Of a stretch of DNA of 64,000 nucleotides, positions 4,496 through 17,077 are shown one piece after another. This DNA is from Maribellus sediminis (GTDB taxonomy: Bacteria > Bacteroidota > Bacteroidia > Bacteroidales > Prolixibacteraceae). The notes beneath the pieces were generated by a model, which saw only the letters and a list, made by a program, of their open reading frames with translations, did not search any database and was not told where the DNA came from. Position 1 is the stretch's first letter, and each line of letters starts with the position of its first letter. The stretch covers positions 434,001 to 498,000 of the forward strand of contig NZ_WXUB01000004.1 of the NCBI RefSeq assembly GCF_011799805.1, read 5' to 3'. The position numbers were made by a program, and so were the translations under genes.

Positions 4496-4556
4496 ATTTT
4501 TCGTAACTATCGATTTACTTGTATTTCTTTTGGTTTTGTTCGTCCTGGTTTAATGC

Positions 4557-4678
4557 TAACGATAAATTATAAGTTCAGCTTGCGTGTTAATCTCTTTCCC
4601 GTTTGCTACGGACGAGAGATTGAGTGAAAATAAGCAGCTCGAATACCACTAATGCCGCCTTGTATTTATAAAGTGTTA
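4557..4678 (-). repeat. attC-like palindromic site (left, diverged)
   Basis: The segment starts with TAAC (4557-4560) and ends with GTTA (4675-4678). Its ends form an imperfect inverted repeat: the left end reads TAACGATAAATTATAAGTTC and the complement of the right end reads TAACACTTTATAAATACAAG. A second inner inverted repeat (AATCTCT with AGAGATT) lies near the middle. The site follows the stop codon of the esterase gene by 7 bases in cassette orientation. Sequence likeness to the well-conserved sites at 13.6 and 14.8 kb is low, so the assignment rests on geometry. Confidence 0.45.
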
Positions 4679-4685
4679 CCAATTG

Positions 4686-5531
4686 TTAGTTAATCTCTAT
4701 AAATGGTTCCTTGTTTAAAAATCCAAGCGATTGTAAAAACTTATCAGCTTCAGAAACTGTTTTTTTGTAGTATTCAAAATTTTTATAGTTAAAAAATCCA
4801 TGCCCCTGACCATTGTACAAATACAGTTCACATTTACTTCCCACTTTCTTCATGACTGTCTGGTAATATTTGGCAGTTTCTTCAGGAATTAAAGCGTCAT
4901 CTGTTCCCAGGAAAAAGATTGTGGGTGGTGCACTCTTTTTTATATTGTGCAGCGGTGAAAATTTTTTATACGCATCGCCAATTCTATCATATCCGTATCC
5001 TCCCGGACCATTGTCAATAACCGGATTAAAAAGTACCAACGCATTAGGAATGCAACTTATCGACAAGTTATCTGTATTCTCATTATAATCTTCAATTAAT
5101 GCTGTTGCTGCTGCAAGATGCCCTCCGGCTGAACCTCCGGCTGCAATAATTTTTGAAGGATCAATATGAAATCTGTTCGCATGTTCTCGAATGTACCGAA
5201 TAGCTGATTTTGCATCCATCAATGATTCGAAAGGTGTCGTATGCTGTCTTTGATTCACTCTGTAATCAACGAGAGAGCAAATTAACCCTCTTTGAGAAAA
5301 ATAGCTGGCCTGTGGTTTAAATTGGTCGATTGAACCACCGTTCCAACCGCCTCCAAAAAAGAAAACCATTGCAGGATATTTTTTAGCCGGTTCAATTGTT
5401 TCAGGCTGATATACTTGCATAAATAATGCAGTTGAATCAATTTGCTTGTATTGGATTTGTTTCTGAGAATATCCAAATGAATAAGCAACAAGTACTATCA
5501 ATAAAATCAAAATGTGTTTTCTACAGATCAT
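4686..5531 (-). CDS. secreted alpha/beta hydrolase (esterase/lipase family)
   Basis: This enzyme of 281 residues has a signal peptide (about 1-22). The oxyanion-hole segment is FFFGGGWNGG (58-66), the Gly-rich counterpart of the HGGG motif of hormone-sensitive-lipase-like esterases. The nucleophile motif is GGSAGG with Ser134. Asp212 in GTDDALIP and His244 in GQGHGF complete the triad. Such secreted enzymes in Bacteroidota often deacylate plant polysaccharides, and the GH43 gene directly upstream fits that. The gene lies between two attC-like segments (4557-4678 and about 5548-5690). It may therefore be a cassette passenger, which would be unusual for a carbohydrate esterase. The exact substrate cannot be read from the sequence. 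Confidence 0.8.
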   Translation of the reverse strand: MICRKHILILLIVLVAYSFGYSQKQIQYKQIDSTALFMQVYQPETIEPAKKYPAMVFFFGGGWNGGSIDQFKPQASYFSQRGLICSLVDYRVNQRQHTTPFESLMDAKSAIRYIREHANRFHIDPSKIIAAGGSAGGHLAAATALIEDYNENTDNLSISCIPNALVLFNPVIDNGPGGYGYDRIGDAYKKFSPLHNIKKSAPPTIFFLGTDDALIPEETAKYYQTVMKKVGSKCELYLYNGQGHGFFNYKNFEYYKKTVSEADKFLQSLGFLNKEPFIEIN

Positions 5532-5547
5532 TTTTTATTTTTTTAGA

Positions 5548-5690
5548 GTTGCCAGCACTACAAGTATGCCTGATGGAGGACTGCAAACGAGAATCCTCTC
5601 GAAACGCTAAAAGGTTGAAGCGGTCAATTGCCCGCCCGAAATGTTTTAATCACCGCCATTAAATATACATGATTTGTAACAAGTAAATCA
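5548..5690 (-). repeat. possible degenerate attC-like segment
   Basis: This non-coding stretch lies between the GH43 stop and the esterase start. Its ends can be aligned as an imperfect inverted repeat: ACAAGTATG...ATGGAGG on the left, and ACAAATCATG...AATGGCGG as complement of the right. The interior contains CTGCAAACGAGAATCC, close to the interior of the 14.8 kb site (CTGCGAAACGAGAATCCGC). On the minus strand, the bases leading into the esterase gene (GGCAACTCTAAAA) resemble the GGCAAGTTTAAA found after the better sites. The outer TAAC/GTTA is not kept, so this is a weak call. Confidence 0.35.
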
Positions 5691-5698
5691 TTATTACG

Positions 5699-6814
5699 CT
5701 ATTCCAAATCAATTTTTACCTTCCAGTGTTTGGCAACATCTTTTAGTTCATCCGGCGTTAAATAGGTTACCGCACCATGTTTAGGCCTCTCAAAATTTGT
5801 GGTTTTCATTATCCCTTCATTAAAATGACCGATATTTTTGTAGGTTTCAAAATCCGTAGTCTCGCTAAATCCCATATTATTCGGACGGGCACCGTATACA
5901 TCGTACATTAACACATAGGTATCTGTGCCCAGGCGTTTAAAAACATTTGGTGCTTCGGTATTAACACTTTCCGGGTCAATGCGTTTTCCCTCCGTTTTGA
6001 ACCCTCCGTTGATTTTATCAGAAACCGAATGCAACACTTTAGCACCATTCACATAAAACAGGTGATAGTTATCTCCGACTTTTGTAATGTCTCCGTCCAG
6101 TCCACCAATTTCGGTAATGCGTTTCGGAAGGGTTTCCAGTTTCGTAAAATCTTCGTTTGGATAGCAATAATACATATGACATTCCTTGTTATTATATCGA
6201 ATGGTGAAATATACCATCATTTTATCCTCCTTTTCGTCGTAAACTGTTTGAGGTGCCCACGAACAGTCAATGTCTCCAAGTTCAGGAAATGCTTTGTCGA
6301 CACGGAAATCAGAATGCGTCCAGTGAATCAGATCGTATGATTTCATCAATACAATAGCCCGGTTGTTTCCCCATCCGTATTTTTCAGCAGGGCGTTGCCA
6401 ATCTGTACCGCGAAAACCGGCACGTTTACCAAAAATGTGAAGATCGGTCATAACCAGGTAAAAAGCTCCATCCGGACCACGAGTGATATGAGGGTCGCGC
6501 ACCCCCTTTTGTTCAGCCAGATCTACTCCCCTGAACACAGGCTCACCATCATTCACATCAGTAAATGTGCAGCCATCGCTACTTATTGCAAAATATGCCG
6601 ATTGGGTTTGATCTTTGAAATAGACCAGAAGGTAACCTCCGAAGTCGTTCTCATCCGGTTTTTGTTGTTTTTCTGGTTTCTTAAGTTCTGAAACAATTTC
6701 AGTACCGGTAGGTCTCATCGCATCCTGATCGGGATTTAATCGGGTTTGTGCGGCAATCGGAGCAAAAAAACTCAAAGCATAAATTAATTCGAACAATAAC
6801 AATTTGTACATCAT
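5699..6814 (-). CDS. secreted glycoside hydrolase family 43-like protein
   Basis: This protein of 371 residues begins with a signal peptide (about 1-22). It has the five-bladed propeller signatures of GH43: KGVRDPHITRGPDGAFYLVM supplies the conserved RDP segment, DCSWAPQTVYDEKEDKMMVY the second-blade SWAP motif, and GLDGDITKVGDNYHLFYVNG and NTEAPNVFKRLGTDTYVLMY later blades with the EAP motif. GH43 enzymes remove arabinose or xylose from plant hemicelluloses. It probably acts in the periplasm or at the cell surface with the adjacent esterase. No SusC/SusD genes are nearby, which is unusual for a Bacteroidota polysaccharide locus and fits a gene that arrived alone. Confidence 0.8.
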   Translation of the reverse strand: MMYKLLLFELIYALSFFAPIAAQTRLNPDQDAMRPTGTEIVSELKKPEKQQKPDENDFGGYLLVYFKDQTQSAYFAISSDGCTFTDVNDGEPVFRGVDLAEQKGVRDPHITRGPDGAFYLVMTDLHIFGKRAGFRGTDWQRPAEKYGWGNNRAIVLMKSYDLIHWTHSDFRVDKAFPELGDIDCSWAPQTVYDEKEDKMMVYFTIRYNNKECHMYYCYPNEDFTKLETLPKRITEIGGLDGDITKVGDNYHLFYVNGAKVLHSVSDKINGGFKTEGKRIDPESVNTEAPNVFKRLGTDTYVLMYDVYGARPNNMGFSETTDFETYKNIGHFNEGIMKTTNFERPKHGAVTYLTPDELKDVAKHWKVKIDLE

Positions 6815-6837
6815 GATTTCTATTTTTTAAACTTCAC

Positions 6838-6945
6838 GTTATCAATTTTGGGCCGGGACTAAATTCTTGTTCTGCAATTATAGCACAATTGGAATTTTCT
6901 GTTCGTATCGAATCATTTACTTGTCGGCCAGGGCAAAATTATTTA
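6838..6945 (-). repeat. attC-like segment after the YdeI-like gene (diverged)
   Basis: The ends form an inverted repeat: TCAATTTTGGGCCGG near 6842 against CGGCCAGGGCAAAATTATT near 6925-6943. On the minus strand the bases that follow it (AACGTGAAGTTTAAAAAA) match the AACGGCAAGTTTAAA leader seen after the strong sites at 11.1 and 13.6 kb. The stop codon of the YdeI-like gene (6943-6945) touches the outer end, as it does at the 11.3 and 14.9 kb sites. GTTA has decayed to ATTA or GATA, so the site may no longer be active. Confidence 0.45.
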
Positions 6946-7521
6946 TTGGAGATTCTCACCTCTTGCTAACTTTTCAATAATTTCTTTCATACGCTTTTCT
7001 CTTGTCTCTTGCTTTTTTGCGGTTTGCGTTCGAAACCCAATAGAGAAAAGATTCGTTTTATTAAGCCCTTTAAAAAACTCTTCTGCTTTCTTGTTCTTAC
7101 TTAGTTCTTCTAGAAAGTCATCTGGTATGGTCATTTTGCTTGGGGGATCGTATGCCTTTTCCCAACGACCATCCTCTTTGGCTTTTTCGACAGCTTTTAA
7201 TCCCGCAGGTCTCATTTTACCTTCTTTGATTAATCTTTCAACGTGCCCGGTATTTACTTTAGACCAAATACTTTTTGCGGTTCTCGGACTAAATTTTTGT
7301 AACCATGCTTGTTCGTCAAATGATTTTTTTTGACCATCTATCCAGCCATAACAAAGAGCCACATCAAGTGCCTCTGCATAATTAATGGTTTTTACCCCGG
7401 AGCCTTTTTTGAATATTTTTAACCAAAGTCCACTTGAATTGTCATGATTTTTTTCAAGCCAGGTTTCAAATGCTTTGGCTGTTTTGAATTCAATAATTGA
7501 TAAAGTATTTAATTTATTCAT
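6943..7521 (-). CDS. YdeI/OmpD-associated family protein
   Basis: This protein of 192 residues belongs to the YdeI/OmdA-like family, sometimes named bacteriocin-protection proteins. Family marks are TAKAFETWLEKNHDNSSGLW at the start, CYGWIDGQKKSFDEQAWLQKF and SPRTAKSIWSKVNTGHVERL. The start at 7521 was chosen over a longer frame to 7671 because the extra 50 codons run through a palindromic attC-like site (7557-7699) and code for nothing recognisable. YdeI-like genes are frequent integron and island passengers. There is no signal peptide, so the protein is cytoplasmic. The biochemical role is not established for the family. Confidence 0.8.
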   Translation of the reverse strand: MNKLNTLSIIEFKTAKAFETWLEKNHDNSSGLWLKIFKKGSGVKTINYAEALDVALCYGWIDGQKKSFDEQAWLQKFSPRTAKSIWSKVNTGHVERLIKEGKMRPAGLKAVEKAKEDGRWEKAYDPPSKMTIPDDFLEELSKNKKAEEFFKGLNKTNLFSIGFRTQTAKKQETREKRMKEIIEKLARGENLQ

Positions 7522-7556
7522 ATTTCTGTGGATTTTTCCGTCCTCTTTGCTTGCCG

Positions 7557-7699
7557 TTAGTGGTTGGTGTAAGTTCTTGTAGCGGATTTCGGAGAGCTTG
7601 CCCGTCAGGTAAGACGGACGGAACTGCCAAACGAGCCCCGAAGCCTCGGGACGTAGTTGACGTACCACCAAACCCCGCCCTGCAATATGTACTGTGTTA
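7557..7699 (-). repeat. attC-like site A
   Basis: The right half is almost identical to the sites at 13.6 and 14.8 kb, including ACCCCGCCCTGCAATATGT and the end GTGTTA (GTTA at 7696-7699). The central stem CCCCGAAGCCTCGGG and the GCGGATTTCGGAGAGC box are also shared. The left outer end reads CCGTTAGTGG where the other sites have CCGTTAACGG, so the outer TAAC is changed to TAGT. It lies between the stop of the 246-residue gene (7711) and the start of the YdeI-like gene (7521). Confidence 0.7.
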
Positions 7700-7710
7700 T
7701 GTGGTGTTTT

Positions 7711-8451
7711 TTATTCAAAATTTACTATTAACCTTTCTGTCATTATTTTTCTCTCATCAAATTCAATTCCCAGTTTGTCGTGAAAATACATTAGTATCTT
7801 GTCTCTTTTTAGACTTGGGACTTTAAAAGAATAAAATTTTGAGTCCTTAATATTGTTTTCAAAAACCTGTCCTTTTACAGAAAAGTTGAATGCTTTAAAA
7901 ACACCATCTAAATCATTTCCCATAAATTCAACATAGTCTTTTCCAAGTCTATATTTCCCATCATTTTCATTAACCTGTTTTTGTTCAAGTTTTTCTTTAT
8001 CGACAAGTCTGGTTACATATTTTTGCAATTGAACACTGTCATAGTTGTATTTAAAATCAAATTCTCCACAGAGTTTATCCAGGATTTCGTTTTTGTGTAA
8101 TTTATAATTTCCAATAGAGTCTTTTGGATAATAAGAAAAATTGAACCTTTTTTTAGGACTTTTCTCTGGATTGCTAAACTCGCTGCTGTTAATATTTTTT
8201 TGAGTTAGAAATAATAGAATATCATTTAGTTTATAATTGTAAATAATAATTGTGTCATGGTAAAAGTCAATTCCTGTTTTAACACAACCCTTTGATGAAT
8301 TTATTGCCATCTCAATTTTGAAATCTTTCGTCTCATAGAATAATGATTCCTGTTCCCAATTTTTTGTAATTAATCTCAGTGCAAGATTCTTGAAGAGAAA
8401 TATTGCCAGTATAGAGATTATTAGAATTATTAGTACTCGTTTGGTATTCAT
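7711..8451 (-). CDS. hypothetical membrane-anchored protein, 246 residues
   Basis: I do not recognise this protein. Residues about 5-26 form one hydrophobic helix (VLIILIISILAIFLFKNLAL) that could be a signal anchor. The rest is a soluble domain rich in Lys, Asp and aromatic residues, mixed alpha/beta in appearance, with one Cys (about residue 57). It is the single gene between attC-like sites B and A and its stop lies 12 bases from site A, so it is a one-gene cassette. The composition is AT-rich compared with the flanking core genes such as eno, which fits acquired DNA. Confidence 0.6.
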   Translation of the reverse strand: MNTKRVLIILIISILAIFLFKNLALRLITKNWEQESLFYETKDFKIEMAINSSKGCVKTGIDFYHDTIIIYNYKLNDILLFLTQKNINSSEFSNPEKSPKKRFNFSYYPKDSIGNYKLHKNEILDKLCGEFDFKYNYDSVQLQKYVTRLVDKEKLEQKQVNENDGKYRLGKDYVEFMGNDLDGVFKAFNFSVKGQVFENNIKDSKFYSFKVPSLKRDKILMYFHDKLGIEFDERKIMTERLIVNFE

Positions 8452-8496
8452 AAGTGTTTATCTATAATTTATGGGCTGCATTTTTCAAATACCACA

Positions 8497-8635
8497 TAAC
8501 AGTGGTGGTATGAGGTCGTGGCGGTCAGACGAGAGTCTGACCAGTCCGACCGAAACTGAGGTAGGCACGAGATTCGACTTGTCGCCCCGAAGCTTCGGGG
8601 CGCACAAACCCAGCCATGCCTTATACCACGTGTTA
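8497..8635 (-). repeat. attC-like site B
   Basis: It begins TAACAGTGGTGGTATGAGG (TAAC 8497-8500) and ends CCTTATACCACGTGTTA (GTTA 8632-8635). The complement of the right end is TAACACGTGGTATAAGG, an imperfect inverted repeat of the left. It has an inner perfect stem CGCCCCGAAGCTTCGGGGCG. The primary sequence of the outer arms differs from sites A, F and G while the fold is kept, as expected for attC sites that are recognised by structure. Confidence 0.65.
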
Positions 8636-8645
8636 GCGGTAGTTA

Positions 8646-8918
8646 TTATTTATTATTTCTAAATTTATCAATTATCTTCCTTATATAGTTTGAAATTGTT
8701 TGAAGGTCCTTTTTAATTGAATCTTTTTCGAACAGACTTGTAGAAGACCTTATAAATTTTATATCCTTTCTTATTGAATCTTTTTCGAATTGACTAACCT
8801 TGCTTTTTAATTCAAGAATTAGATTGGATGCCTGTATATTTATTTTTTCCGATTCAGGTTGATTATTCCAAATCTCCTTTAAATCTTGCCAAATATCGTT
8901 TTGTTCTTTACTCAACAT
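8646..8918 (-). CDS. small charged protein paired with the sigma factor, 90 residues
   Basis: This is a short, highly charged, helical protein with no membrane segment. It contains an internal duplication: FEKDSIRKDIKFI (about residues 39-51) and FEKDSIKKDLQTI (about 63-75), also visible in the DNA. It starts 4 bases after the stop of the ECF sigma gene, so the two are translated together and share one cassette. The position is that of an anti-sigma factor. The start, with NDIWQDLKEIW, resembles the cytoplasmic start of Bacteroidota anti-sigma proteins, but the usual transmembrane helix is missing. I infer a soluble regulator of the sigma factor or a truncated anti-sigma. Confidence 0.6.
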   Translation of the reverse strand: MLSKEQNDIWQDLKEIWNNQPESEKINIQASNLILELKSKVSQFEKDSIRKDIKFIRSSTSLFEKDSIKKDLQTISNYIRKIIDKFRNNK

Positions 8919-8922
8919 AAAA

Positions 8923-9426
8923 TTATAATTTATTGGTGATACAATTCAGTAATATTTTTCTTATTCTTTTCATTTTTACGGCGATATGATTTTCTGTCAA
9001 ACCCGTAATTACTGCTATGTCTTTATAAGGTAATCCTTCTAAATAAAGAATAATTATGGATTTATTATTTTCCTCTAATAAGGATATGCAAGAAGCAAGA
9101 GCTTTATACTTTTCTTGTTGACTTTTATCCTGTGGAACCTCAACCGGAATAAATTCAATAGATTCTAATCGAACAAATTTTTTATTTTCAGTTACTGATT
9201 TTTGTTTCGAACGAAGGCAAACATTTAGGGTAATTTTATAAATCCAAGTATTGATGTTTGATTTCCCGTTGAAAGTTGAGAATGATTTCCAGATTTCGCT
9301 TACTACATCTTGAAAAAGGTCTTGCGGTTCTAATGGATGTAAGGAATATATTTTACAAATTCGGTAAATTCTATTTTTATTGAATTCAATTATCTGTTCA
9401 AATGTAACCGATGATTTGTTTTGCAT
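8923..9426 (-). CDS. ECF-type RNA polymerase sigma factor
   Basis: This protein of 167 residues has the two domains of an extracytoplasmic-function sigma factor. Region 2 lies at about residues 10-75, with LEPQDLFQDVVSEIWKSF and INTWIYKITLNVCL. Region 4 lies at about 107-160, with YLEGLPYKDIAVITGLTENH as the helix-turn-helix followed by VKMKRIRKIL. The length is normal for the family. It would direct RNA polymerase to its own promoters, possibly including its own. It sits in one cassette with the 90-residue gene at 8646-8918. A sigma factor carried between attC-like sites is notable because it could bring its own expression system to a new host. Confidence 0.9.
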   Translation of the reverse strand: MQNKSSVTFEQIIEFNKNRIYRICKIYSLHPLEPQDLFQDVVSEIWKSFSTFNGKSNINTWIYKITLNVCLRSKQKSVTENKKFVRLESIEFIPVEVPQDKSQQEKYKALASCISLLEENNKSIIILYLEGLPYKDIAVITGLTENHIAVKMKRIRKILLNCITNKL

Positions 9427-9512
9427 TTAGTATATTTTTAACTCTTCACATGTATTAGTTACACGGTTTATTAAGATATGACGAAAAATCAAAATTAATT
9501 TCGGGATTTCTG

Positions 9513-9602
9513 GAAGAAATCCTGTCAGACCCGCAGGAAAGTTGGCGCAAGGTCTGACTTGTCAGACCGCTAAAACCCCCGCCTGCCATATACAAATTGT
9601 TA
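9513..9602 (-). repeat. attC-like site C (right half clear, left half not found)
   Basis: The segment ends CCGCCTGCCATATACAAATTGTTA (GTTA 9599-9602), matching the CCGCCCTGCAATATGTA...GTTA end of the other sites. Inner repeats GGTCTGAC and GTCAGACC form short stems. I could not find a matching left outer end with TAAC in the bases before 9513, so the site is either truncated or more diverged. It lies between the 182-residue gene (stop 9615) and the sigma gene (start 9426), where a site is expected. Confidence 0.45.
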
Positions 9603-9614
9603 CAAGCTGGTTTT

Positions 9615-10163
9615 TTATTTTTTATTTAATTTCCAATAGTCAAATCCAATTTTACTCTTATAAAAATCAAGACTCATCGAATCTCCTATATTTTCTTTTT
9701 CCCAAATTTTTCGATGACATCTTATCTCCACTGGTCTATTATTTATAACAAAATGAAGTTTATTATATCCAGCTGACATATATCGATATTGTCTTTCTGT
9801 CTTATTTGTTATTCTTGCTTTGTAAGTGTTTTGCAATGTTGCATTTAAAGAATTGAATTTTACTCCCATTAGAAGAAAGATTCCAATAAATCCCATCGCA
9901 AAAAACAATTTTAATTGAGAGTAATCTTTTACTTTTTTGTTCACTCTCAATACAATAGGTTTAAGTTTCGAAGAAATTAGATAACTTAAAACAACTCCGA
10001 TTCCACCAAAAAGGAAACTAAATTTATATGGAGTCACGTAGTTCTCAATATCTCCAGCCCAAATTGCTAAAGCAATTCCATAGAATGGAGACAACATAAA
10101 TATTATCCCAAAGATTATATATAGGACTTTGTCTTTCATTGTCTTTTTTTGCTTTTTAGGCAT
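9615..10163 (-). CDS. hypothetical membrane protein, 182 residues
   Basis: I do not recognise this protein. The first 110 residues contain three hydrophobic segments (about 13-34, 43-64 and 86-104). The C-terminal 75 residues are soluble, with TERQYRYMSAGYNKLHFVIN and WEKENIGDSMSLDFYKSKIG. The start MPKKQKKTMKDK is basic, which fits a cytoplasmic N-terminus. It begins 15 bases after the stop of the SEFIR gene, so both probably share one transcript and one cassette. The pairing suggests, but does not prove, that the membrane protein works with the SEFIR protein. Confidence 0.6.
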   Translation of the reverse strand: MPKKQKKTMKDKVLYIIFGIIFMLSPFYGIALAIWAGDIENYVTPYKFSFLFGGIGVVLSYLISSKLKPIVLRVNKKVKDYSQLKLFFAMGFIGIFLLMGVKFNSLNATLQNTYKARITNKTERQYRYMSAGYNKLHFVINNRPVEIRCHRKIWEKENIGDSMSLDFYKSKIGFDYWKLNKK

Positions 10164-10178
10164 TTGCTGTAGACTTAC

Positions 10179-11105
10179 TTAAAATTGAATATCATCTGCA
10201 ATATTTCTAATATTGTCATTATGTTTTTTTCTTGCTTGCTCCTCTCGTTCTCTTTTTAATTTCTCTTGTAGCTTAATCTCTTTATATCTTTTGTTAACAG
10301 TCTCCACAACAAGTTTTAAAGTGTCTTTATGATATTTTTTAACTTCCTCAATTGTTGTCCCATCAAGAATAATTTTGTTACCACTAACATACCCGATTCC
10401 TGGTCTGTGCATACTTGTGCATGATGGAGGTCTGTCCCAAGTAAGTCTAAATAATTCAGACCATTGATAGTCAGGTCTTTTGTTTAATTCGAATGGAATT
10501 TTGTATAAAGCACTTCCCGGACTCCCGTCATTTAAAGGTTCTCCGACCTCATCCACTAAGATTCCTTTAATTCTAATTTCGTCCGTTTCTGGTTCCGGGA
10601 TTTTCGTTGGTTGTTGTATTGTTTTTGTTGGCTTATATTGCCCAAGTGGAGGTGCTGTTTCTCGAATATTTAAAATTGTTGTAATTAAGTCTTTAAAGTT
10701 ACTCTCTATATTTGCCAACTCACTTAAGTCAATATAGTATTTGCCAGAAATCCAAGTTGGTGCAGATTCTTTCCAATTTCCTTTTCTTAAGATTGGAATG
10801 AATTTTAGCTGGTTTTGGTTTTGAAAAACCTCTCCAGTAATAATATCTCCTTCATATCCGACACCGCCTTCTCTCTTGTCTGATTTACTTTTGTATTTTG
10901 GTGTACATATTATCAAAACATAATCGATTTCACGAATAGACTTCTCCATGAAGTTTGGTAATTGGTCTCCGGGTACAATTTCCCACTGGTCTAATTTTAC
11001 ATCAACTCCATTGTCACGGAGTCTTGATGCCAAGCTTTTTACCCAATTTTTGTGTTCATCATCTTCCCATGAATAGGAAATAAAAGCTGTCGGATATTCA
11101 TTCAT
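10179..11105 (-). CDS. SEFIR (TIR-like) domain protein
   Basis: This protein of 308 residues has an N-terminal SEFIR domain (about 1-140). It opens with PTAFISYSWEDDEHKNWV, the signature box 1, then LRDNGVDVKLDQWEIVPGD, and then MEKSIREIDYVLIICTPKYK, the box-2-like strand. Bacterial SEFIR and TIR domains act as signalling modules or NAD-consuming effectors, often in anti-phage defence. The second half (about 175-308) is a separate domain with PFELNKRPDYQWSELFRLTW and a basic, coiled C-terminus. It is the first gene of the cassette between sites D and C, followed by a membrane protein 15 bases on. A defence role is inference from domain type and mobile context. Confidence 0.8.
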   Translation of the reverse strand: MNEYPTAFISYSWEDDEHKNWVKSLASRLRDNGVDVKLDQWEIVPGDQLPNFMEKSIREIDYVLIICTPKYKSKSDKREGGVGYEGDIITGEVFQNQNQLKFIPILRKGNWKESAPTWISGKYYIDLSELANIESNFKDLITTILNIRETAPPLGQYKPTKTIQQPTKIPEPETDEIRIKGILVDEVGEPLNDGSPGSALYKIPFELNKRPDYQWSELFRLTWDRPPSCTSMHRPGIGYVSGNKIILDGTTIEEVKKYHKDTLKLVVETVNKRYKEIKLQEKLKREREEQARKKHNDNIRNIADDIQF

Positions 11106-11129
11106 GTTTCTTTGTTTTAAACTTGCTGA

Positions 11130-11256
11130 TAACGGTCACTTGCAAGTTGTCGTTGCGGATTTCGAAGAGCGTCAGTGTCCGACGGGACATGACGGTCAAG
11201 AAAGGAGCAGAGACAACGCACACCACTGCACCCGCAATGCAATTTGCAACTTGTTA
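11130..11256 (-). repeat. attC-like site D
   Basis: It starts TAACGGTCACTTGCAAGTTG (TAAC 11130-11133) and ends CAATTTGCAACTTGTTA (GTTA 11253-11256). The complement of the right end begins TAACAAGTTGCAAATTG, an imperfect inverted repeat of the left arm. It shares the GCGGATTTCGAAGAGCGT box with sites A, F and G. The stop codon TAA of the HEPN-like gene (11254-11256) lies inside the outer TAAC. After the site the minus strand reads AGCAAGTTTAAAACAAAG into the SEFIR gene. Confidence 0.7.
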
Positions 11257-11970
11257 ACGGCTGGTTTTTTCTTTTTTTCTATTTTCTTTTATTTTCCTTA
11301 TTCTCTCGACTTTATCATTAATAACTTTTATTTTGCTTGACAATGTCCAAGTTTTTGTTTTGTCAATCAACTCTTCAAGTTCAGACATATGGACATAAAA
11401 ATCTCTAAAATGTGTTTTGTGCGGGCTTTCTATTAAGTCTTCTACTGCTTGTCCAATTTTTTCATAGACTTCAAACAATATGTCAATTTTAACAAAGTCT
11501 AATGATGAAATTTTTATTGATGTAGCATTATTTACGTCGGTGTTCTCAGAATTCAACGCCGCAGCCCATTGACCATGGGCGATTTTGTTTCTAATCTGGC
11601 TTGGTTCAATTATGAAGTTGTTTAAGTGCCTTTTTAATATTAGCTTTTTATTTTGAATTTCTCCTGAGTTGCTCATTTTATCAACACTAGAAAAAGCCAA
11701 TTCGATACACTTCTGCCATTGCTGTTCAAGGTTTCTTTGTTTTACAATTTGATTTATATAGCTATCTGAAAATCCATAGGGTGTATGTATCATTTTTAGG
11801 AAACAAGTCTCTGCAAATGAAGAATACAGTAAAGCATAAAGTTTTGTTAGAACTTCAAATGAAGATTTATCACTATTAATTATGACTTTATTAAAAAGTC
11901 TTTTTAAGCTTTTCCTCTGTTTTTTTAGTTCTCTTACGTTTGAAACGCTTGCTTGATAAATTTTTAGCAT
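11254..11970 (-). CDS. hypothetical HEPN-like protein, 238 residues
   Basis: This is a helical cytoplasmic protein. The segment SQIRNKIAHGQWAAALN contains R-N-K-I-A-H, which fits the R-x4-H motif of HEPN ribonuclease or nucleotide-binding domains and is also common in abortive-infection-like proteins. The family call is tentative because no other family block was recognised. The ATG at 11970 was chosen. A TTG at 11997 in the same frame would start inside a perfect terminator hairpin. The start is odd: the terminator U-tract (8 T on the minus strand) abuts the ATG directly, leaving no Shine-Dalgarno sequence. The stop codon is part of attC-like site D. Confidence 0.55.
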   Translation of the reverse strand: MLKIYQASVSNVRELKKQRKSLKRLFNKVIINSDKSSFEVLTKLYALLYSSFAETCFLKMIHTPYGFSDSYINQIVKQRNLEQQWQKCIELAFSSVDKMSNSGEIQNKKLILKRHLNNFIIEPSQIRNKIAHGQWAAALNSENTDVNNATSIKISSLDFVKIDILFEVYEKIGQAVEDLIESPHKTHFRDFYVHMSELEELIDKTKTWTLSSKIKVINDKVERIRKIKENRKKEKTSR

Positions 11971-12016
11971 AAAAAAAAGGCTTGTAATGCGTACCAATGG
12001 TTACGCATTACAAGCC
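11971..12016 (-). terminator. perfect intrinsic-terminator hairpin
   Basis: On the minus strand a 15-bp perfect stem (12016-12002 pairing with 11993-11979, GGCTTGTAATGCGTA with its complement) has an 8-base loop and is followed by eight T. It ends directly before the ATG of the HEPN-like gene. It follows a tRNA-like segment, so it may end that transcript or act as an attenuator for the downstream gene. Confidence 0.7.
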
Positions 12017-12076
12017 CGGAGTCGAACCGGGAACTACCATTGCTGGTCGCTTTGCCTTATTAAGCTACAAGTTCAT
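12015..12076 (-). ncRNA. tRNA-like element lacking a normal anticodon arm
   Basis: On the minus strand there is a perfect T arm (CCCGG-TTCGACT-CCGGG, 12031-12015) and a D-arm-like hairpin (TA-GCTT-AATAAGGCA-AAGC, about 12067-12049). The middle section is only 17 bases with at most a 4-bp stem (ACCA/TGGT), too short for a 5-bp, 7-base anticodon arm. The bases 5' of the D arm (ACTTGTA) do not pair with those 3' of the T arm (CTTGTAA), but they can pair with TACAAG in the far arm of the terminator hairpin. It is therefore either a decayed tRNA or a structured leader. Confidence 0.4.
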
Positions 12077-12146
12077 AGCAAAAATAGGCAAAATCAGTAA
12101 ATGACAACCAAAGGAACAGTTAAATTATTTTATTCAATGTTACATC

Positions 12147-12992
12147 TTATCTCTTTGTTTTAAAATTCCGATAACGTTTTTTATTAACATGTCTTTCTAA
12201 CAAAAATTCATAATGTATATATTCTACTCCGTCCTTTTTTAAACAGCATTCCGAATATTTTTTTGTCGAATTGCATGGACAATAGTCTTCGGGTTTTATG
12301 TCTTTATAATTTTCGTGGGGAGCATATTTCCTTCGTGTTACTAAATCCCACCTTTCAAAAGGATGTTTAATAGTTTCAAACAGATAATTTATAACTGTAT
12401 AATCATAATGGTCAATGGTTTCACCATCGTCACTCTCCTTAATAAATGGGACAGTATATTTGTTTACAGGATTTTCTACAAACGCAATACCCAATATGTC
12501 TGATTTTGTTACGACTCGTAAACACATTTCTCCGAGGTAAATTTCTCCAACCTTATGAGGGCAAGGATTTCTGGGAGTTATTATTTTATCACAAATATTA
12601 CACTTCACTTCTTTTTTTATCATTTCAATGCTAGTGAACATTCTGTATGGAAAAATAGCTTGCAAGTTTTTTACATTTCTTTCTATTTGTGATAATCTAT
12701 ATAAGTTATCTTTAAATGGAAAGTGTGGTTTCAAAAATTGAATACTGATTTCAATATTCTCGAGTTTGCACCAACCTTTGTAATACTCTTTATTTTGTAT
12801 GAGTTTAAAAGCCTCTAGATAATTTTTATGTATTTTGACTATCTCCTCATAAATCCAATATTCCTTTGATTTGCTATCATCATTTTTAGCAACATAATTG
12901 TGTTTTAAAGAAGTTATTTCTGTTAAAAGAGAATCTAAATCGAGTGAAATATCTCCCAAACTAGCTAATTTTGAGACTACATTATTTTGCAT
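12147..12992 (-). CDS. SEC-C motif protein, 281 residues
   Basis: The protein is cytoplasmic and largely helical in its first 110 residues. Two metal sites are visible. A CxxC...C group is present in VKCNICDKIITPRNPCPHKV (about 129-147). Near the C-terminus CPCNSTKKYSECC (about 238-250) is a SEC-C zinc-binding motif (CxC-x8-CC). SEC-C motifs occur at the end of SecA and on many stand-alone proteins tied to nucleases and mobile elements. Its start overlaps the end of the upstream gene by 11 bases, so the two are translationally coupled in one cassette. There is no visible attC-like site between this gene and the HEPN-like gene. Confidence 0.7.
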   Translation of the reverse strand: MQNNVVSKLASLGDISLDLDSLLTEITSLKHNYVAKNDDSKSKEYWIYEEIVKIHKNYLEAFKLIQNKEYYKGWCKLENIEISIQFLKPHFPFKDNLYRLSQIERNVKNLQAIFPYRMFTSIEMIKKEVKCNICDKIITPRNPCPHKVGEIYLGEMCLRVVTKSDILGIAFVENPVNKYTVPFIKESDDGETIDHYDYTVINYLFETIKHPFERWDLVTRRKYAPHENYKDIKPEDYCPCNSTKKYSECCLKKDGVEYIHYEFLLERHVNKKRYRNFKTKR

Positions 12993-13551
12993 CCCACAAT
13001 TTTTTTATTGATTCAGTAATATTCTCTACTTGGTTAGCTGGACCTTCATAATTAAATTCTTTCGTAACCTTACTAGAATCTTCAACTATAATGGTAAACT
13101 TAACTTCAGGGATTTCTAAATATTTCTTTGGCGATTCCTTATCAGTATTTTCTATATAAACTTGATGTGCTTCATTTGTAGGTTTTATAATGGTATCGTA
13201 AACATATGATGATAAAACTGCTAGAAATACAGGAAGAGCAACTGATTTTACTATAAACTTTCCTAGTCTTTTATAATTGCTATGTAAGGCAAGTTCTTGA
13301 TATAGTTCATCGGCAATACAAATATCAACTGAAAACTCCTTATCAATTTTTTCTTTAAAATAGGAATATATTGCTTCTGTTCCTGATGGAAAAGTTGCTT
13401 CATTTTCCCTTCGTTGACCGATAAATGGTAAAAATAAAATAGAAGCTTTATTTAGGTCTTCTTTAATTTCAGCAGAAACAAAATCACTGTTAATCCAATA
13501 CTTAAAATCTTCCTTTGTTTCTTTTAATTGTATAAGAGATTCTATGTTCAT
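12982..13551 (-). CDS. hypothetical protein with one membrane helix, 189 residues
   Basis: I do not recognise this protein. Residues about 103-124 (FIVKSVALPVFLAVLSSYVYDTI) form a membrane helix, which leaves a cytoplasmic N-terminal domain (about 100 residues) and a C-terminal domain of about 65 residues on the other side. The start at 13551 was chosen because a longer frame to 13788 would run through the attC-like site at 13575-13720. It overlaps the start of the SEC-C gene by 11 bases, so a joint function is likely. It is the first gene after site F. Confidence 0.6.
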   Translation of the reverse strand: MNIESLIQLKETKEDFKYWINSDFVSAEIKEDLNKASILFLPFIGQRRENEATFPSGTEAIYSYFKEKIDKEFSVDICIADELYQELALHSNYKRLGKFIVKSVALPVFLAVLSSYVYDTIIKPTNEAHQVYIENTDKESPKKYLEIPEVKFTIIVEDSSKVTKEFNYEGPANQVENITESIKKLWDAK

Positions 13552-13574
13552 ATGCTTTAGTTTAAACTTGCCGT

Positions 13575-13720
13575 TAACGGTTGGTACATGTTGTCGGGGC
13601 GGATTTCGAAGAGCGTTCCTGTCCGTCAGCTGACGGACACGGAACTGCGAAACGAGCCCCGAAGCCTCGGGGCGCAGTTGGCGTACCACCGAACCCCGCC
13701 CTGCAATATGTACTGTGTTA
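13575..13720 (-). repeat. attC-like site F
   Basis: It starts TAACGGTTGGTACATGTTG (TAAC 13575-13578) and ends CAATATGTACTGTGTTA (GTTA 13717-13720). Complementing the right end gives TAACACAGTACATATTGCAGG, an imperfect inverted repeat of the left. Inner stems are CGGACAC/GTCAGCTGAC and CCCCGAAGCCTCGGGGCG. It is near-identical over most of its length to the site at 14797-14923, apart from a longer inner stem. On the minus strand GGCAAGTTTAAAC follows into the next gene. Confidence 0.75.
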
Positions 13721-13747
13721 GCAACTGTTTTTATTTTATTTTGAGTT

Positions 13748-14728
13748 TTAGTATGTCTCATACTCAACTGCATATAAGTCGAAACCACCTTTCCCTCCTG
13801 ACCTGTTTGATGAGAAAATCATTAAGTTATGTCCTAATACATCGAATGTTATTGGTCGAAATTCATCTTTACTTGAATTTATTTCACTCCCGAAATTTTC
13901 AGGTTCTGTCCATGCTCCATTTATATAAAATGAATACCATAAATCGTAACCTCCATAACCTCCTTCTCTGTTTGATGCAAATACCATCATATTATCTTCG
14001 CCAATAAACGGACATTTATCGTCACCAGTACTTGATAAAGTTTCTATTTTAGTTATTGAATCTATATCTCCACTGACTAATGCTTCACTTGTAATTACAG
14101 AATTGAAGGAAGCATTAAAAATATTGAATACTCCGTCATTTTTATTACTGCAAAAAATTAAATTCTTTTTATCTGCCGTTAAAGTTGGATAAAGGTCATC
14201 GGCATATTCATTGATTTTAGGGATTGATTTTGGTATTGAATCATAATTTTCTCCTTGCTCATAATACCAACCTGTCATATCCATGAATTGGATGTCATAA
14301 CTAGAGGAATTTTCTGTAGAATACATAAAGATTAAATTCCCTCCAGTGGCGGTAAAATATGGACCAAATTCATTTTTGTCGGAATTGATGTTACGAATGG
14401 CGACTTCAAAATCATAAGGAAGGTCAAAATTCAGTACCTCGCAAGTGAGATTACCGCTTGTTGAGTCTTCGATATAGTACAAATTTGCATAAACCAAATC
14501 AAAATTTTCGCCTTGGCTATTTCTGTTTGATGAAAAAATAATCCAGCCACCTCGTTCTCCATCTGGTTCCCAATTTGAATTGTAATCATCATATTTTGTA
14601 TTAAGAGCACCCAAATTGGTTGGAGTTTGAGTTATAATTGCAGATTTTTCAATAACGTCTTCATCGTCATTCCAAAAACATCCCGTAAGTGAGATGGTCA
14701 CAATTAGTAGGAAAATAATTTTTTTCAT
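13748..14728 (-). CDS. lipoprotein with PD40 (WD40-like) beta-propeller repeats
   Basis: The ATG at 14728 gives 326 residues with a lipoprotein signal peptide (MKKIIFLLIVTISLTGC). A longer frame begins 8 codons earlier but spoils the signal. PD40-type propeller motifs are seen: WIIFSSNRNSQGENFDLVYA, LIFCSNKNDGVFNIF, MVFASNREGGYGGYDLW and LMIFSSNRSGGKGGFDLYAV. In Bacteroidota such domains occur on OmpA-like and TolB-like envelope proteins and usually bind partners. The mature protein should sit in the outer or inner membrane by its lipid and face the periplasm or surface. It is the single gene between sites G and F. Ligand unknown. Confidence 0.75.
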   Translation of the reverse strand: MKKIIFLLIVTISLTGCFWNDDEDVIEKSAIITQTPTNLGALNTKYDDYNSNWEPDGERGGWIIFSSNRNSQGENFDLVYANLYYIEDSTSGNLTCEVLNFDLPYDFEVAIRNINSDKNEFGPYFTATGGNLIFMYSTENSSSYDIQFMDMTGWYYEQGENYDSIPKSIPKINEYADDLYPTLTADKKNLIFCSNKNDGVFNIFNASFNSVITSEALVSGDIDSITKIETLSSTGDDKCPFIGEDNMMVFASNREGGYGGYDLWYSFYINGAWTEPENFGSEINSSKDEFRPITFDVLGHNLMIFSSNRSGGKGGFDLYAVEYETY

Positions 14729-14796
14729 TTTGGTTTTTTTTGGTTGAAACATTAATTTTTAAAATATCATCGTTTTGTCTTTTTTAAACTTGGCGG

Positions 14797-14923
14797 TAAC
14801 GGTTGGTACATGTTGTCGGGGCGGATTTCGGAGAGCGTTCCTGTCCGAAGGACACGGAACTGCGAAACGAGAATCCGCAGTTGGCGTACCACCGAACCCC
14901 GCCCTGCAATATGTACTTTGTTA
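14797..14923 (-). repeat. attC-like site G
   Basis: It starts TAACGGTTGGTACATGTTG (TAAC 14797-14800) and ends CAATATGTACTTTGTTA (GTTA 14920-14923). The two arms are imperfect inverted repeats, with GGGGCGG and CCCCGCC as further paired boxes and GCGGATTTCGGAGAGCG and GCGTACCACCG inside. Its length is 127 bp. The TAA stop of the upstream lipoprotein gene (14921-14923) is the outer TAA of the site, the compact arrangement known from integron cassettes. Confidence 0.75.
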
Positions 14924-15700
14924 CCTGCTGGCTTTTAATTCTTTTGCATTGTTTTCAATTAAGTTTAACATATCTGAATCGAATCCAATAGGAATTCTTT
15001 CTAATCCAGACATTATTTCATTCTCGTCATTGATAATTACGAAAGGAGAATAATTTTCTTTTATCATGATTTTTCCCAATATCGCATATGAAACTAAGTT
15101 CTCATTTTGCGAAATACCGTAATCTTTTTTTGCTTGAAGCTTTTCTAATACCGTTTCAAGAATCTGTATTCTTTGATTTGAGTTCGTTTTATTCAACAAC
15201 TCGTCCTGAAGCATAAAGAATTCAATTGTTTGAAAAGAAATTTGAATTGGAGTTTCTATTTCTCCGATAAATGGAGGATAATAATTTTTGTCGCAATTTA
15301 AAGACATTAGCTTATATCGTTCTGTAATAACATTAAAGAAATCCGTTCTGTCATAAAGTTCGTCAAATCCATTGTTTTCGGATTTAATTCTCTCAAATCC
15401 GTCCTGTTGTAGATTAAATGCACCATAGTCAAGTATTAGCGGATATGTCAATAAAGTTTCCAATAAACCCTCTGTCGAAATTGATTTTATTTTGCTACTT
15501 GGGATTTGGCAAGCCTGTACCTTTTCGGTTGATGATTTTAAGTCTGCCCATTCATCCGTTCCTGGAACAATTGGGTATTGGTAAGTGTCAGAAATGGAGA
15601 AAGGCATACACTCTCCTTGTTGAATAACAAGTTCGTCTTTATTACAACTAAGCAAACCAACTAAGACAATTGTGTAAATCAATGTTTGAATTTTTTTCAT
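14921..15700 (-). CDS. hypothetical lipoprotein, 259 residues (first cassette)
   Basis: The protein begins with a lipoprotein signal peptide (MKKIQTLIYTIVLVGLLSC, Cys19). The mature part is mixed alpha/beta, with three further Cys residues (CMPF, CQIP and NCDK segments) and no motif that I recognise. It is the cassette next to the recombinase, with the attI-like segment on its 5' side (15779-15866) and attC-like site G on its 3' side. In an integron the first position holds the newest insertion. The end of the frame (LKASR, then TAA) runs into the attC-like site. Confidence 0.65.
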   Translation of the reverse strand: MKKIQTLIYTIVLVGLLSCNKDELVIQQGECMPFSISDTYQYPIVPGTDEWADLKSSTEKVQACQIPSSKIKSISTEGLLETLLTYPLILDYGAFNLQQDGFERIKSENNGFDELYDRTDFFNVITERYKLMSLNCDKNYYPPFIGEIETPIQISFQTIEFFMLQDELLNKTNSNQRIQILETVLEKLQAKKDYGISQNENLVSYAILGKIMIKENYSPFVIINDENEIMSGLERIPIGFDSDMLNLIENNAKELKASR

Positions 15701-15778
15701 AATTTGGTTTTTTATTGATTTCTTTTCCCAATTAGATGATTTTCAATCCATAATGGTTGCTTTTTTTAAGCTTGCAGG

Positions 15779-15866
15779 TAACGTATGTGGAACCCAAAAC
15801 TTTGGGTTATTTCGCTATTGTCAATTTGGGTTATACCCCCGATTTGGGTGTGTAACCCAAGTTTTT
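15779..15866 (-). repeat. attI-like segment with TTTGGGTTA repeats
   Basis: Between the recombinase stop and the first cassette there are five copies of one motif in both orientations: AACCCAAA (15791), TTTGGGTTAT (15801), TTTGGGTTAT (15825), TTTGGGTG (15843) and TAACCCAA (15853). The outer copies form two inverted pairs. The left end carries TAAC (15779-15782) followed on the minus strand by TTACCTGCAAGCTTAAAA, the leader seen at the cassette junctions. These would fit recombinase-binding sites beside an insertion point. The role is inference. Confidence 0.5.
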
Positions 15867-15868
15867 GT

Positions 15869-17077
15869 CTAAAGTAGCTCATCCAACGGATTTTTAAAAT
15901 TCTTAAAATTATGTTCCGTAACATGGGTGTAACGTTGAGTGGTTTTTAAACTGTCGTGCCCAAGCCATGCTTGAATAAAACGGATATCCACGCCTTGTTC
16001 AAGCTGATGCGTGGCAAAACTGTGCCGCAACATATGCGGATGAACACGTTTTGTTATGCCTGCTTTTTGTGCGGCAGTTTTCAACAAGATAGAGATATTC
16101 TCGGGTGAATAAGGTCCACCCTTTTGTCCTTCAAATAACCAAAAACCAGGCTTGTACTCACGATGGTATTGTCTTAGTAATTTTAATAATCCCTCCGAAA
16201 GCTGCACATACCTGTCTTTCTTTCCTTTAGCACCTGAAATCTTTATCATCATTCGTTTCGAGTCAACGTCTTTAACTTTCAGATTAACCAGTTCACTTCT
16301 TCGTAATCCACACGAATAAATTGCCGATAGTAAAGTTTTGTGCTTCAGGTTTTCGGTGGCTTTTAAAATAGCTCCCACTTCTTCCTTACTCAATATGTCA
16401 GGTAAGATTTTTTCTTTTCTCGGACGCTCTATTTCATAAACCTGCCTCGCTTTTCGCAGGACTTTTTCATAATAAAACTTAATAGAGTTTATCCTTTGGT
16501 TTTGCTCGCTGGTAGTAATATCCCATTTATTTATGAGTGCCAGCAAGTAGGCATTGATTTCATCTCCGCTTACTTCGTTCAGATCTCTTTCACTAAAATA
16601 GTGCACGAAATCTTTGAAATAGGCAGAGTAGGTTTTTTGAGTGCTCTGGCTGTATCGTTTTTGTTTTAGCAGCTCAATATATCCTTTAGGCAATTCGGTG
16701 GACGATCGATGCGAATAATCCCGGCTGGCTTTTTGCAGAACCATCGGCTTTGTTTTGATTTTTAGCGCTGCATAATCAATATAAGCTAAATCCTTCAGTC
16801 CCTCGAAAAAACGTCCCAAGTTGAATTCATCTTTTGCAATAAACCAACACGCTAATGATTTACTCCACCTTGCCGGAAACAATTCTTTTAGCCGGTCGTT
16901 TATTGCCGGATGATATAAAAAGCGAACAAGAACAACCTCCTGCTGTTGGTGCTGACTATTTTCAAGCGTTATTTGCGGGCGTAGGGTCAATGTTTTTGGT
17001 TTTTGGTTCTGATGGTTACCGGAATAAAAATAAACATAATTTCTGAAAATGCAGCGATGGTAATCATTTGATGGCAA
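15869..17077 (-). CDS. tyrosine recombinase/integrase flanking the cassette array
   Basis: This protein of 402 residues has an N-terminal arm domain (about 30-95, with ARWSKSLACWFIAKDEF), a SAM-like core-binding domain (about 125-215) and a catalytic domain. Catalytic residues are visible: Arg259 in SCGLRRSEL, Lys284/286 in GAKGKKDRYV, His348 and Arg351 in HPHMLRHSFATH, His374 in WLGHDSLKTTQ and Tyr383 in RYTHV. The end NPLDELL recalls IntI and XerD ends. The extra segment of IntI proteins between the beta-sheet lysine and the HxxR box is absent. The spacing there is short (about 60 residues), so it is XerC/D-like. It is read toward the array, as in integrons with an inverted integrase. The first codons are uncertain, and a later start is possible. 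Confidence 0.85.
   Translation of the reverse strand: MPSNDYHRCIFRNYVYFYSGNHQNQKPKTLTLRPQITLENSQHQQQEVVLVRFLYHPAINDRLKELFPARWSKSLACWFIAKDEFNLGRFFEGLKDLAYIDYAALKIKTKPMVLQKASRDYSHRSSTELPKGYIELLKQKRYSQSTQKTYSAYFKDFVHYFSERDLNEVSGDEINAYLLALINKWDITTSEQNQRINSIKFYYEKVLRKARQVYEIERPRKEKILPDILSKEEVGAILKATENLKHKTLLSAIYSCGLRRSELVNLKVKDVDSKRMMIKISGAKGKKDRYVQLSEGLLKLLRQYHREYKPGFWLFEGQKGGPYSPENISILLKTAAQKAGITKRVHPHMLRHSFATHQLEQGVDIRFIQAWLGHDSLKTTQRYTHVTEHNFKNFKNPLDELL

What the first reader, a model, noticed from the sequence alone, without database searches (positions are those of the whole stretch)
4500..17077. Integron-like gene-cassette array served by a recombinase that is not IntI
Seen: a tyrosine recombinase, a repeat-rich junction, then mostly one- and two-gene units on the same strand, most separated by imperfect palindromes of 120-150 bp bounded by TAAC and GTTA. 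The cargo is unrelated and AT-rich. Known: this is the layout of integrons with an inverted integrase (as in Treponema denticola), but IntI is defined by an extra segment before the HxxR box. Here that segment is absent. Inference: an XerC/D-like enzyme may have independently acquired, or kept an older form of, attC-type cassette recombination. I do not know whether this exact type has been named.
Basis: partly seen in the sequence, partly recalled or inferred. Interest (0 to 1): 0.85.

Follow-up and report, generated by a model that had tools for sequence, protein, structure and literature searches.

The report
Integrons without the integron integrase
In a Bacteroidota genome a gene-collecting array, like the integrons that gather resistance genes elsewhere, appears to be run by a recombinase that lacks the part thought essential for the job, and the same arrangement recurs in many related bacteria.

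Summary
The window carries a tyrosine recombinase (15869-17077, -), a candidate attI 86 nt past its stop, and eight same-strand attC-like palindromes (four strong, four weak or decayed) between 14923 and 4557. Relatives show cassette behaviour: in 142 of 153 testable neighbours the six bases that open a cassette complement the six that close it (shuffled mean 3, maximum 11). A cassette 98.9% identical to one in the own genome sits between unrelated neighbours in a species whose enolase gene is 85% identical; copies repeat inside arrays. The sites covary at DNA level, almost without G-T pairs, and hold two near-invariant A.C mismatches. The recombinase lies outside the IntI clade, is 42 residues shorter where IntI has I2, and carries another N-terminal domain. 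In 247 genomes of the class (Bacteroidia, inferred) the family occurs in 109, canonical IntI in 1. So: an integron-like platform without IntI. Against: similar sites also lie away from recombinases; seven genomes have 13-34 sites and no such recombinase found; only 3 of 5 testable cassettes of the window match fully; nothing biochemical is shown. Ten searches of one library found no report. New variant of a known kind.

The parts
15869..17077 (-). tyrosine recombinase, 402 aa, no I2 segment; catalytic residues conserved in the family alignment
   Evidence: Pfam PF00589 2.2e-41; NF040815 233.6 bits over cut-off 220, TIGR02249 IntI 201.6 under cut-off 265, XerC/XerD under cut-off; alignment A3 of 24; gap against VchIntIA 2a3v
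16751..16990 (-). N-terminal extra domain of the recombinase (about 80 aa)
   Evidence: conserved in A4, 26 rows; model pLDDT 89.6; weak likeness to SMARCAL1 HARP and archaeal XPB N-terminal domain
15780..15868 (-). candidate attI: 3' flank of the recombinase with ATAACCCAA repeats; crossover GTT at 15780-15782, 86 nt past the stop
   Evidence: next six bases complement the end of cassette 1, 6 of 6; like geometry in 16 of 21 loci by script
14797..14923 (-). attC-like site 1 (104.8 bits)
   Evidence: R1; training site
13575..13720 (-). attC-like site 2 (77.2 bits)
   Evidence: R1
11130..11256 (-). attC-like site 3 (102.8 bits)
   Evidence: R1; training site
9479..9602 (-). attC-like site 4, decayed right core (38.7 bits)
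   Evidence: R1
8497..8635 (-). attC-like site 5 (85.2 bits)
   Evidence: R1; training site
7558..7699 (-). attC-like site 6, decayed right core (25.5 bits)
   Evidence: R1
5564..5668 (-). attC-like remnant 7 (27.4 bits)
   Evidence: R1, model positions 10-115
4557..4678 (-). attC-like site 8, distal end of the array (42.1 bits)
   Evidence: R1
14921..15700 (-). cassette 1 gene, no family found
   Evidence: cassette ends match 6 of 6
13748..14752 (-). cassette 2 gene, PD40 beta-propeller protein
   Evidence: cassette ends match 3 of 6 only
11254..13551 (-). cassette 3: three genes (12982-13551, 12147-12992, 11254-11997) and a tRNA-like fragment 12014-12068
   Evidence: cassette ends match 6 of 6
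9615..11105 (-). cassette 4: bSEFIR defence-type protein 10179-11105 and a protein 9615-10163 without a clear family
   Evidence: PADLOC bSEFIR 3.8e-75, SEFIR and TIR_2; ends 4 of 6
8646..9426 (-). cassette 5: ECF sigma factor 8923-9426 and a 90-aa protein
   Evidence: ends not testable
7711..8451 (-). cassette 6 gene, no family found
   Evidence: ends match 6 of 6
4686..7521 (-). distal part: OmdA/YdeI-type 6943-7521, glycosidase-like 5699-6814, alpha/beta hydrolase 4686-5531, around decayed sites; cassette ends not testable
   Evidence: sites 6 to 8

Best explanation
This is an integron-like cassette platform whose recombinase is not IntI. The enzyme (an Xer/IntI-type tyrosine recombinase with a separate N-terminal domain and without I2) binds an attI just 3' of its own gene and the attC-like sites of cassettes. 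It exchanges strands at the AAC/GTT core, so that each cassette is one unit from GTT to the next AAC and is excised as a circle and inserted at attI, the newest next to the recombinase. Shown by sequence: unit boundaries, cassettes shared between species and duplicated in arrays, attI position, base-paired sites. Inferred: that this recombinase does the exchange; the circle; that the folded single strand is the substrate; that two near-invariant A.C mismatches (G.T on the other strand) do the orienting work that extrahelical bases do for IntI; that the N-terminal domain stands in for I2. In the window the proximal part looks sound and the distal part decayed.
For: Cassette logic: 142 of 153 consecutive site pairs have 6 of 6 complementary opening and closing bases, shuffled pairing mean 3.0 and maximum 11 in 5000; the two flanks of one and the same site match in only 3 of 172 (one of the six bases lies inside the model). 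Same in named Bacteroidota loci: 41 of 49, shuffled maximum 7. attI at a set place: 16 of 21 loci by script, +66 to +97. Movement: ten same-array copy pairs in six arrays; cassettes of 1121 and 743 bp shared at 98.9% between species, flanks unrelated, while enolase is 84.6% identical for the first pair of species and 92.3% for the second. DNA-level palindrome: 16 of 16 variable stem pairs change on both sides, 95.3% of cells paired against 68.8% shuffled; 13 G-T cells in 2684 outside columns 1 and 8; A.C mismatch letters kept in 148-150 of 150. The same group II intron start stands in six sites, three confirmed by Rfam.
Confidence: 0.85

Rival explanations
1. The array is an ordinary CALIN: canonical IntI, now lost or acting from elsewhere, moves the cassettes, and the neighbouring recombinase is a bystander.
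For: Seven same-family genomes hold 13 to 34 sites without such a recombinase found, three of them (G006, G039, G051) with IntI; many sites are scattered; in G104 four sites lie 4-7 kb from an IntI gene.
Against: IntI in 1 of 247 genomes of the class against 109 with this family and none in the own genome; 0 R1 sites in 100 kb around five same-family IntI genes and no classical-type array there by a cruder scan; attI lies at a set distance from this recombinase and shares its bases with cassette 1. Of ten IntI-bearing genomes outside the class, sites were found in 3 of 4 that also hold this family better than 1e-80 and in 1 of 6 others; G104 is one of the former.
Confidence: 0.07
2. Same platform, but the reaction is a classical double-strand exchange on palindromic duplex sites, as Xer enzymes do, and not a folded single-strand reaction.
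For: I2, whose interaction with attC Escudero 2016 (PMC4792948, Discussion part 1 read) ties to avoiding the second cleavage, is absent; stems are Watson-Crick with almost no wobble, so both strands could fold alike; Escudero states integrons could in theory work by the classical pathway alone.
Against: Pairing is kept over 16 bp of very different sequence, which a reader of duplex sequence would not need; the two mismatches make the strands differ. Both are inferences.
Confidence: 0.3
3. The palindromes are terminators or RNA elements, or mobile repeats of REP or MITE type, dispersed between genes.
For: They sit between genes, on one strand, and also occur elsewhere in the genome.
Against: Opening and closing bases match across the gene, not across the palindrome (142 of 153 against 3 of 172); G-T pairs avoided; no Rfam family in the window's sites; whole units are shared with the same ends.
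Confidence: 0.02

Closest known systems
Chromosomal integrons with inverted integrase (Treponema type, recalled)
   Same: recombinase and cassettes on one strand, attI on the 3' side of the recombinase, attC-type sites with AAC/GTT cores, mostly one-strand cassettes
   Different: recombinase lacks I2 and lies outside the IntI clade; sites carry two A.C mismatches 4 bp apart (5 nt on the right arm where an extra base is present) instead of two extrahelical bases, typically T-N6-G (PMC3053210 passages)
CALIN, clusters of attC without integrase (IntegronFinder 2.0, PMC9024848 passages)
   Same: a survey that defines IntI by its extra domain would call these arrays CALIN if its attC model finds them (untested)
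   Different: a recombinase with an adjoining attI is present
XerA/XerC/XerD and the 'integron-like' subgroup of Smyshlyaev 2021 (PMC8138268 passages)
   Different: N-terminal domain, attI and arrays beside it; the own genome has two other Xer-like genes, 35% and 30% identical
Group IIC-attC introns (recalled)
   Same: group II introns sit inside attC-like sites here
   Different: inserted in the right arm of a new site type; subclass not tested

Membership tests
Integron (canonical) | integrase with the IntI additional domain (I2) | tested here: not met
   K-to-HxxR interval 64 residues in 31 of 33 measured family rows among L083-L119, 65 and 67 in the others, 2 unmeasured; 106 in 11 of 11 measured IntI, four same-family IntI unmeasured; alignment gap against 2a3v; TIGR02249 under cut-off
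Integron (canonical) | integrase falls in the IntI clade | tested here: not met
   13 IntI rows form a 100/100 clade, family and relatives (67 rows) a separate 99/87 clade; 94 rows, midpoint root
Integron (canonical) | attI next to the integrase gene | tested here: met
   16 of 21 loci by script; by sequence only
Integron (canonical) | tandem cassettes of different genes, one orientation | tested here: met
   33 sites, one strand, in 66 kb of a single-contig genome; longest ORF on the array strand in 133 of 140 cassettes
Integron (canonical) | attC: imperfect palindrome with AAC/GTT core whose outer arms come from one cassette | tested here: met
Integron (canonical) | two extrahelical bases on the folded bottom strand, spaced about six | tested here: not met
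   two A.C (bottom strand G.T) mismatches instead; one optional bulged base, A in 93 and gap in 49 of 150
Integron (canonical) | cassette excision and integration by the integrase | not testable with these tools
   needs experiment
Integron (canonical) | Pc promoter; SOS control | not tested
   no call made
CALIN as IntegronFinder defines it | two or more attC found by its own covariance model | not tested
   that model is not held here
XerC / XerD | scores over the curated cut-off of TIGR02224 or TIGR02225 | tested here: not met
   193.4 under 335.15; 187.6 under 329.6
NF040815 (XerA / 'integron integrase') | score over cut-off | tested here: met
   233.6 over 220; a broad name, no function tested
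HARP or XPB damage-recognition domain (N-terminal part) | same fold | tested here: inconclusive

The most novel reading that the evidence does not exclude
Bacteroidia run their integrons with a separate clade of I2-less recombinases and a co-adapted attC class read through paired A.C/G.T mismatches and, in one subclade, a HARP-like N-terminal domain. It is either an independent origin or the surviving intermediate that solves the I2/attC chicken-and-egg problem posed by Escudero 2016.
Probability: 0.5. Interest if true: 0.95.

Novelty: new variant of a known kind. Interest (0 to 1): 0.86.

Why it matters
The surveys whose selection rule I saw define IntI by its extra domain (PMC2426708 passages; for IntegronFinder, PMC9668308 passages), so a whole class of bacteria may be scored as lacking integrons. 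IntegronFinder 2.0 (PMC9024848 passages) had earlier seen only In0 in Bacteroidetes and adds one complete integron, in Salinibacter; a review lists Bacteroidota among phyla with integrons (PMC8618304 passages). Here the family is in 109 of 247 genomes of the class. Escudero 2016 asks how I2 could be selected before attC existed and the reverse; an attC-using enzyme without I2 makes that testable. One cassette of the window holds a bSEFIR-type defence gene, so the arrays may be stores of such genes; I did not survey the cargo.

Tried and rejected
Rfam on the window: none at gathering score, and only a sub-threshold tRNA fragment and a chance sRNA match in the array. A model-free palindrome scan was too weak for site sets (30 of 47 pairs at 5 of 5, sites missed) and was replaced by R1; a first pair count demanding TAAC/GTTA (99 of 109) dropped 66 of 189 sites and was replaced. 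Enolase as a fixed neighbour: rejected, it lies elsewhere in 8 of 8 other genomes where I compared positions (G010 and G090 have no close recombinase to compare). Pfam for the N-terminal domain: nothing steady, DUF5710 in 5 of 24 members at best E 0.032. Classical arrays at five IntI genes of the same family: none by a crude scan. IntI genes outside the class: R1 sites in G104 4-7 kb from an IntI, but G104 also holds this family with a site about 1.2 kb from it. Rows left out: of 30 family loci (L002 and L008-L036), five gave no frame by my pattern and two long ones were set aside, leaving 23 plus the window in A3; of 80 named loci 58 gave a frame, 10 of 68 tried gave none, 12 (L151-L162) were not tried, 3 frames under 250 aa were dropped, and 2 of 15 IntI loci. 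L124 and L134 are not in the tree. Literature: ten searches listed no paper on this system as far as titles, abstract starts and the passages opened show; no preprints are held. Figures and one search are partly capped lists. On checking I mended: copies occur in six arrays, not five; enolase of G077 and G096 compared directly.
Full report
What is in the window. The recombinase gene 15869-17077 (-) is open over 402 aa and has PF00589 and SAM-like DNA-binding domains. Its best NCBI model is the broad NF040815; IntI, XerC and XerD models match below their cut-offs, IntI in two pieces. Against VchIntIA (2a3v) the alignment breaks between query 303 and 332, chain 179 and 251. The interval from the catalytic K motif to HxxR is 64 residues in 31 of 33 measured relatives and 106 in 11 of 11 measured IntI. 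On its 3' side lie eight attC-like sites, all on the - strand; no other stretch of the 64 kb matches at E 0.01.

How the site model was made. I aligned 29 sites from the window and same-family genomes, named a structure by hand and counted pairs: 95.3% of cells pair (shuffled 68.8%, slid by one 33-34%), and 16 of 16 variable pairs change on both sides. RNA structures tolerate G-U; here there is almost none: on the 150 best sites 13 G-T cells in 2684 outside columns 1 and 8. That argues for a DNA palindrome. Two positions hold A opposite C, with A in 150 and 150 and C in 149 and 148 of 150 rows, while the pairs beside them vary. On the other strand they read G.T. A further bulged A is present in 93 of 150. 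Rows of that alignment include the training sites and were fitted to the structure.

Cassette logic. If units run from GTT to the next AAC, the opening bases of a unit and its closing bases should pair with each other, as in integron cassettes. Among 189 sites found in 41 sources (761,753 bases), 153 neighbouring pairs could be tested: 142 match 6 of 6; random pairing gives 3.0 on average and at most 11 in 5000 tries; the two flanks of one site match in 3 of 172. The first of the six bases lies inside the model, the other five outside. In named loci from Flavobacteriia and others, 41 of 49 match, random at most 7 (pairs under 3 kb apart). In the window itself three of five testable cassettes match 6 of 6, one 4, one 3; three distal sites have lost a core.

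attI. In 16 of 21 loci a GTT stands 66-97 nt past the recombinase stop as my script found it, and the six bases after it complement the end of the first cassette; nine of these are at +86 to +88, the window at +86. Two further loci (L037, L053) fit by eye where the script overran the stop; two give 4 of 6 (L054, L055) and one none (L045). The flank carries ATAACAACA or ATAACCCAA repeats in many loci.

Movement. Among 140 cassettes with verified ends, ten copy pairs (98.3-100% identical) sit at different places of one array, in six arrays; two cassettes (1121 and 743 bp) are 98.9% identical between species and a third is 83.7%. Neighbours of the first two are unrelated. The species pair of the 1121-bp cassette (G077 and the own genome, second array) has enolase genes 84.6% identical, that of the 743-bp cassette (G077, G096) 92.3%. 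Six sites are interrupted by the same intron start; group II models confirm three, and one has its reverse transcriptase frame.

Link to this recombinase. In one single-contig genome (G083) 33 sites, one strand, fill 66 kb right after the recombinase, and none lie in the 80 kb before it; three genomes together have none in 140 kb before it. Five canonical IntI genes of the same bacterial family have none in the 20 kb around each. Told against it: 29 to 113 sites per genome in six genomes, of which the array beside the recombinase holds roughly 33 of 40 in G083, 23 of 44 in G077, 19 of 34 in G096 and 12 of 29 in the own genome with its two arrays (the two searches have different cut-offs, so these are rough). 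Seven genomes have 13 to 34 sites and no such recombinase found.

Spread and kinship. At E 1e-90 the family is in 109 of 247 genomes of the window's class (Bacteroidia, inferred from named kin), some hits covering the catalytic part only; canonical IntI is in 1 of 247, though in 84 of 296 over the phylum. Arrays stand on the 3' side in 15 of 19 named family loci with at least 2 kb there (13 at E 0.01), among them Draconibacterium orientale, Gillisia limnaea and Xanthomarina. In the tree the window groups with Prolixibacteraceae; IntI is a separate 100/100 clade on a long branch; the order of the deep splits is not resolved. Three relatives that match only in the catalytic part have sites on the 5' side, running away from the gene, the classical layout: L123 (Chryseobacterium, a basal branch of the family clade), L124 and L134 (not in the tree). 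A matching attI was found for L124, 182 nt before the recombinase; L134 has a match 837 nt away, L123 none.

Mechanism. Established for IntI (PMC3053210 passages; PMC4792948 Discussion part 1): the folded bottom strand is read through two extrahelical bases, the I2 helix contacts the second one, and this interaction avoids the second cleavage. Here I2 is absent, and so is that pair of bases; two fixed mismatches are present instead. I read this as a matched change of enzyme and site. The N-terminal domain (pLDDT 89.6) has only weak likeness to HARP and XPB domains, which I recall to bind branched or damaged DNA; its role is a guess. A duplex route remains open (rival 2).

Verdict. An integron-like platform whose recombinase fails the defining test of IntI. 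By all sequence signs it works like an integron; by that definition it is not one. I saw no report of it in ten full-text searches of one open-access library without preprints; of the cited papers I saw passages, and one Discussion in part.

Noticed in passing
L037:1501-8274 (G000:C5:577317 and after): A second recombinase of the family, 53% identical, in the same genome, with an attI-like end and four sites, one broken by a group II intron with reverse transcriptase (4253-5503).
   Followed up: partly
L037 3718, L056 3065, L055 5250, L064 about 6601, L070 2717, L071 2375: The same group II intron start stands in the right arm of attC-like sites in several genomes; three confirmed by Rfam; subclass and target choice not studied.
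   Followed up: partly
window 12014-12068 (-): tRNA-like fragment (26.8 bits, below the 29 cut-off) inside cassette 3, beside a long hairpin.
   Followed up: no
L031, L033, L034, L126, L127, L129, L131, L133: Longer relatives (about 540-720 aa); L033 and L034 look to have two N-terminal domains; L131 has five sites on its 3' side.
   Followed up: no
L123, L124, L134: I2-less relatives matching only the catalytic part, with sites on the 5' side in the divergent, classical layout; a shared motif near 180 nt before the gene looks by eye like their attI.
   Followed up: partly
L144 (Lacinutrix neustonica): Twelve sites in order although the recombinase frame appears broken.
   Followed up: no
L077-L081: Canonical IntI genes in five genomes of the window's family without any attC array found beside them.
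   Followed up: partly
window 10179-11105 (-): bSEFIR-type anti-phage protein as cassette cargo.
   Followed up: no
L103, L125, L091: Close relatives in contigs labelled Desulfurellales, Campylobacteraceae and Neomarinimicrobiota; transfer or binning error not checked.
   Followed up: no
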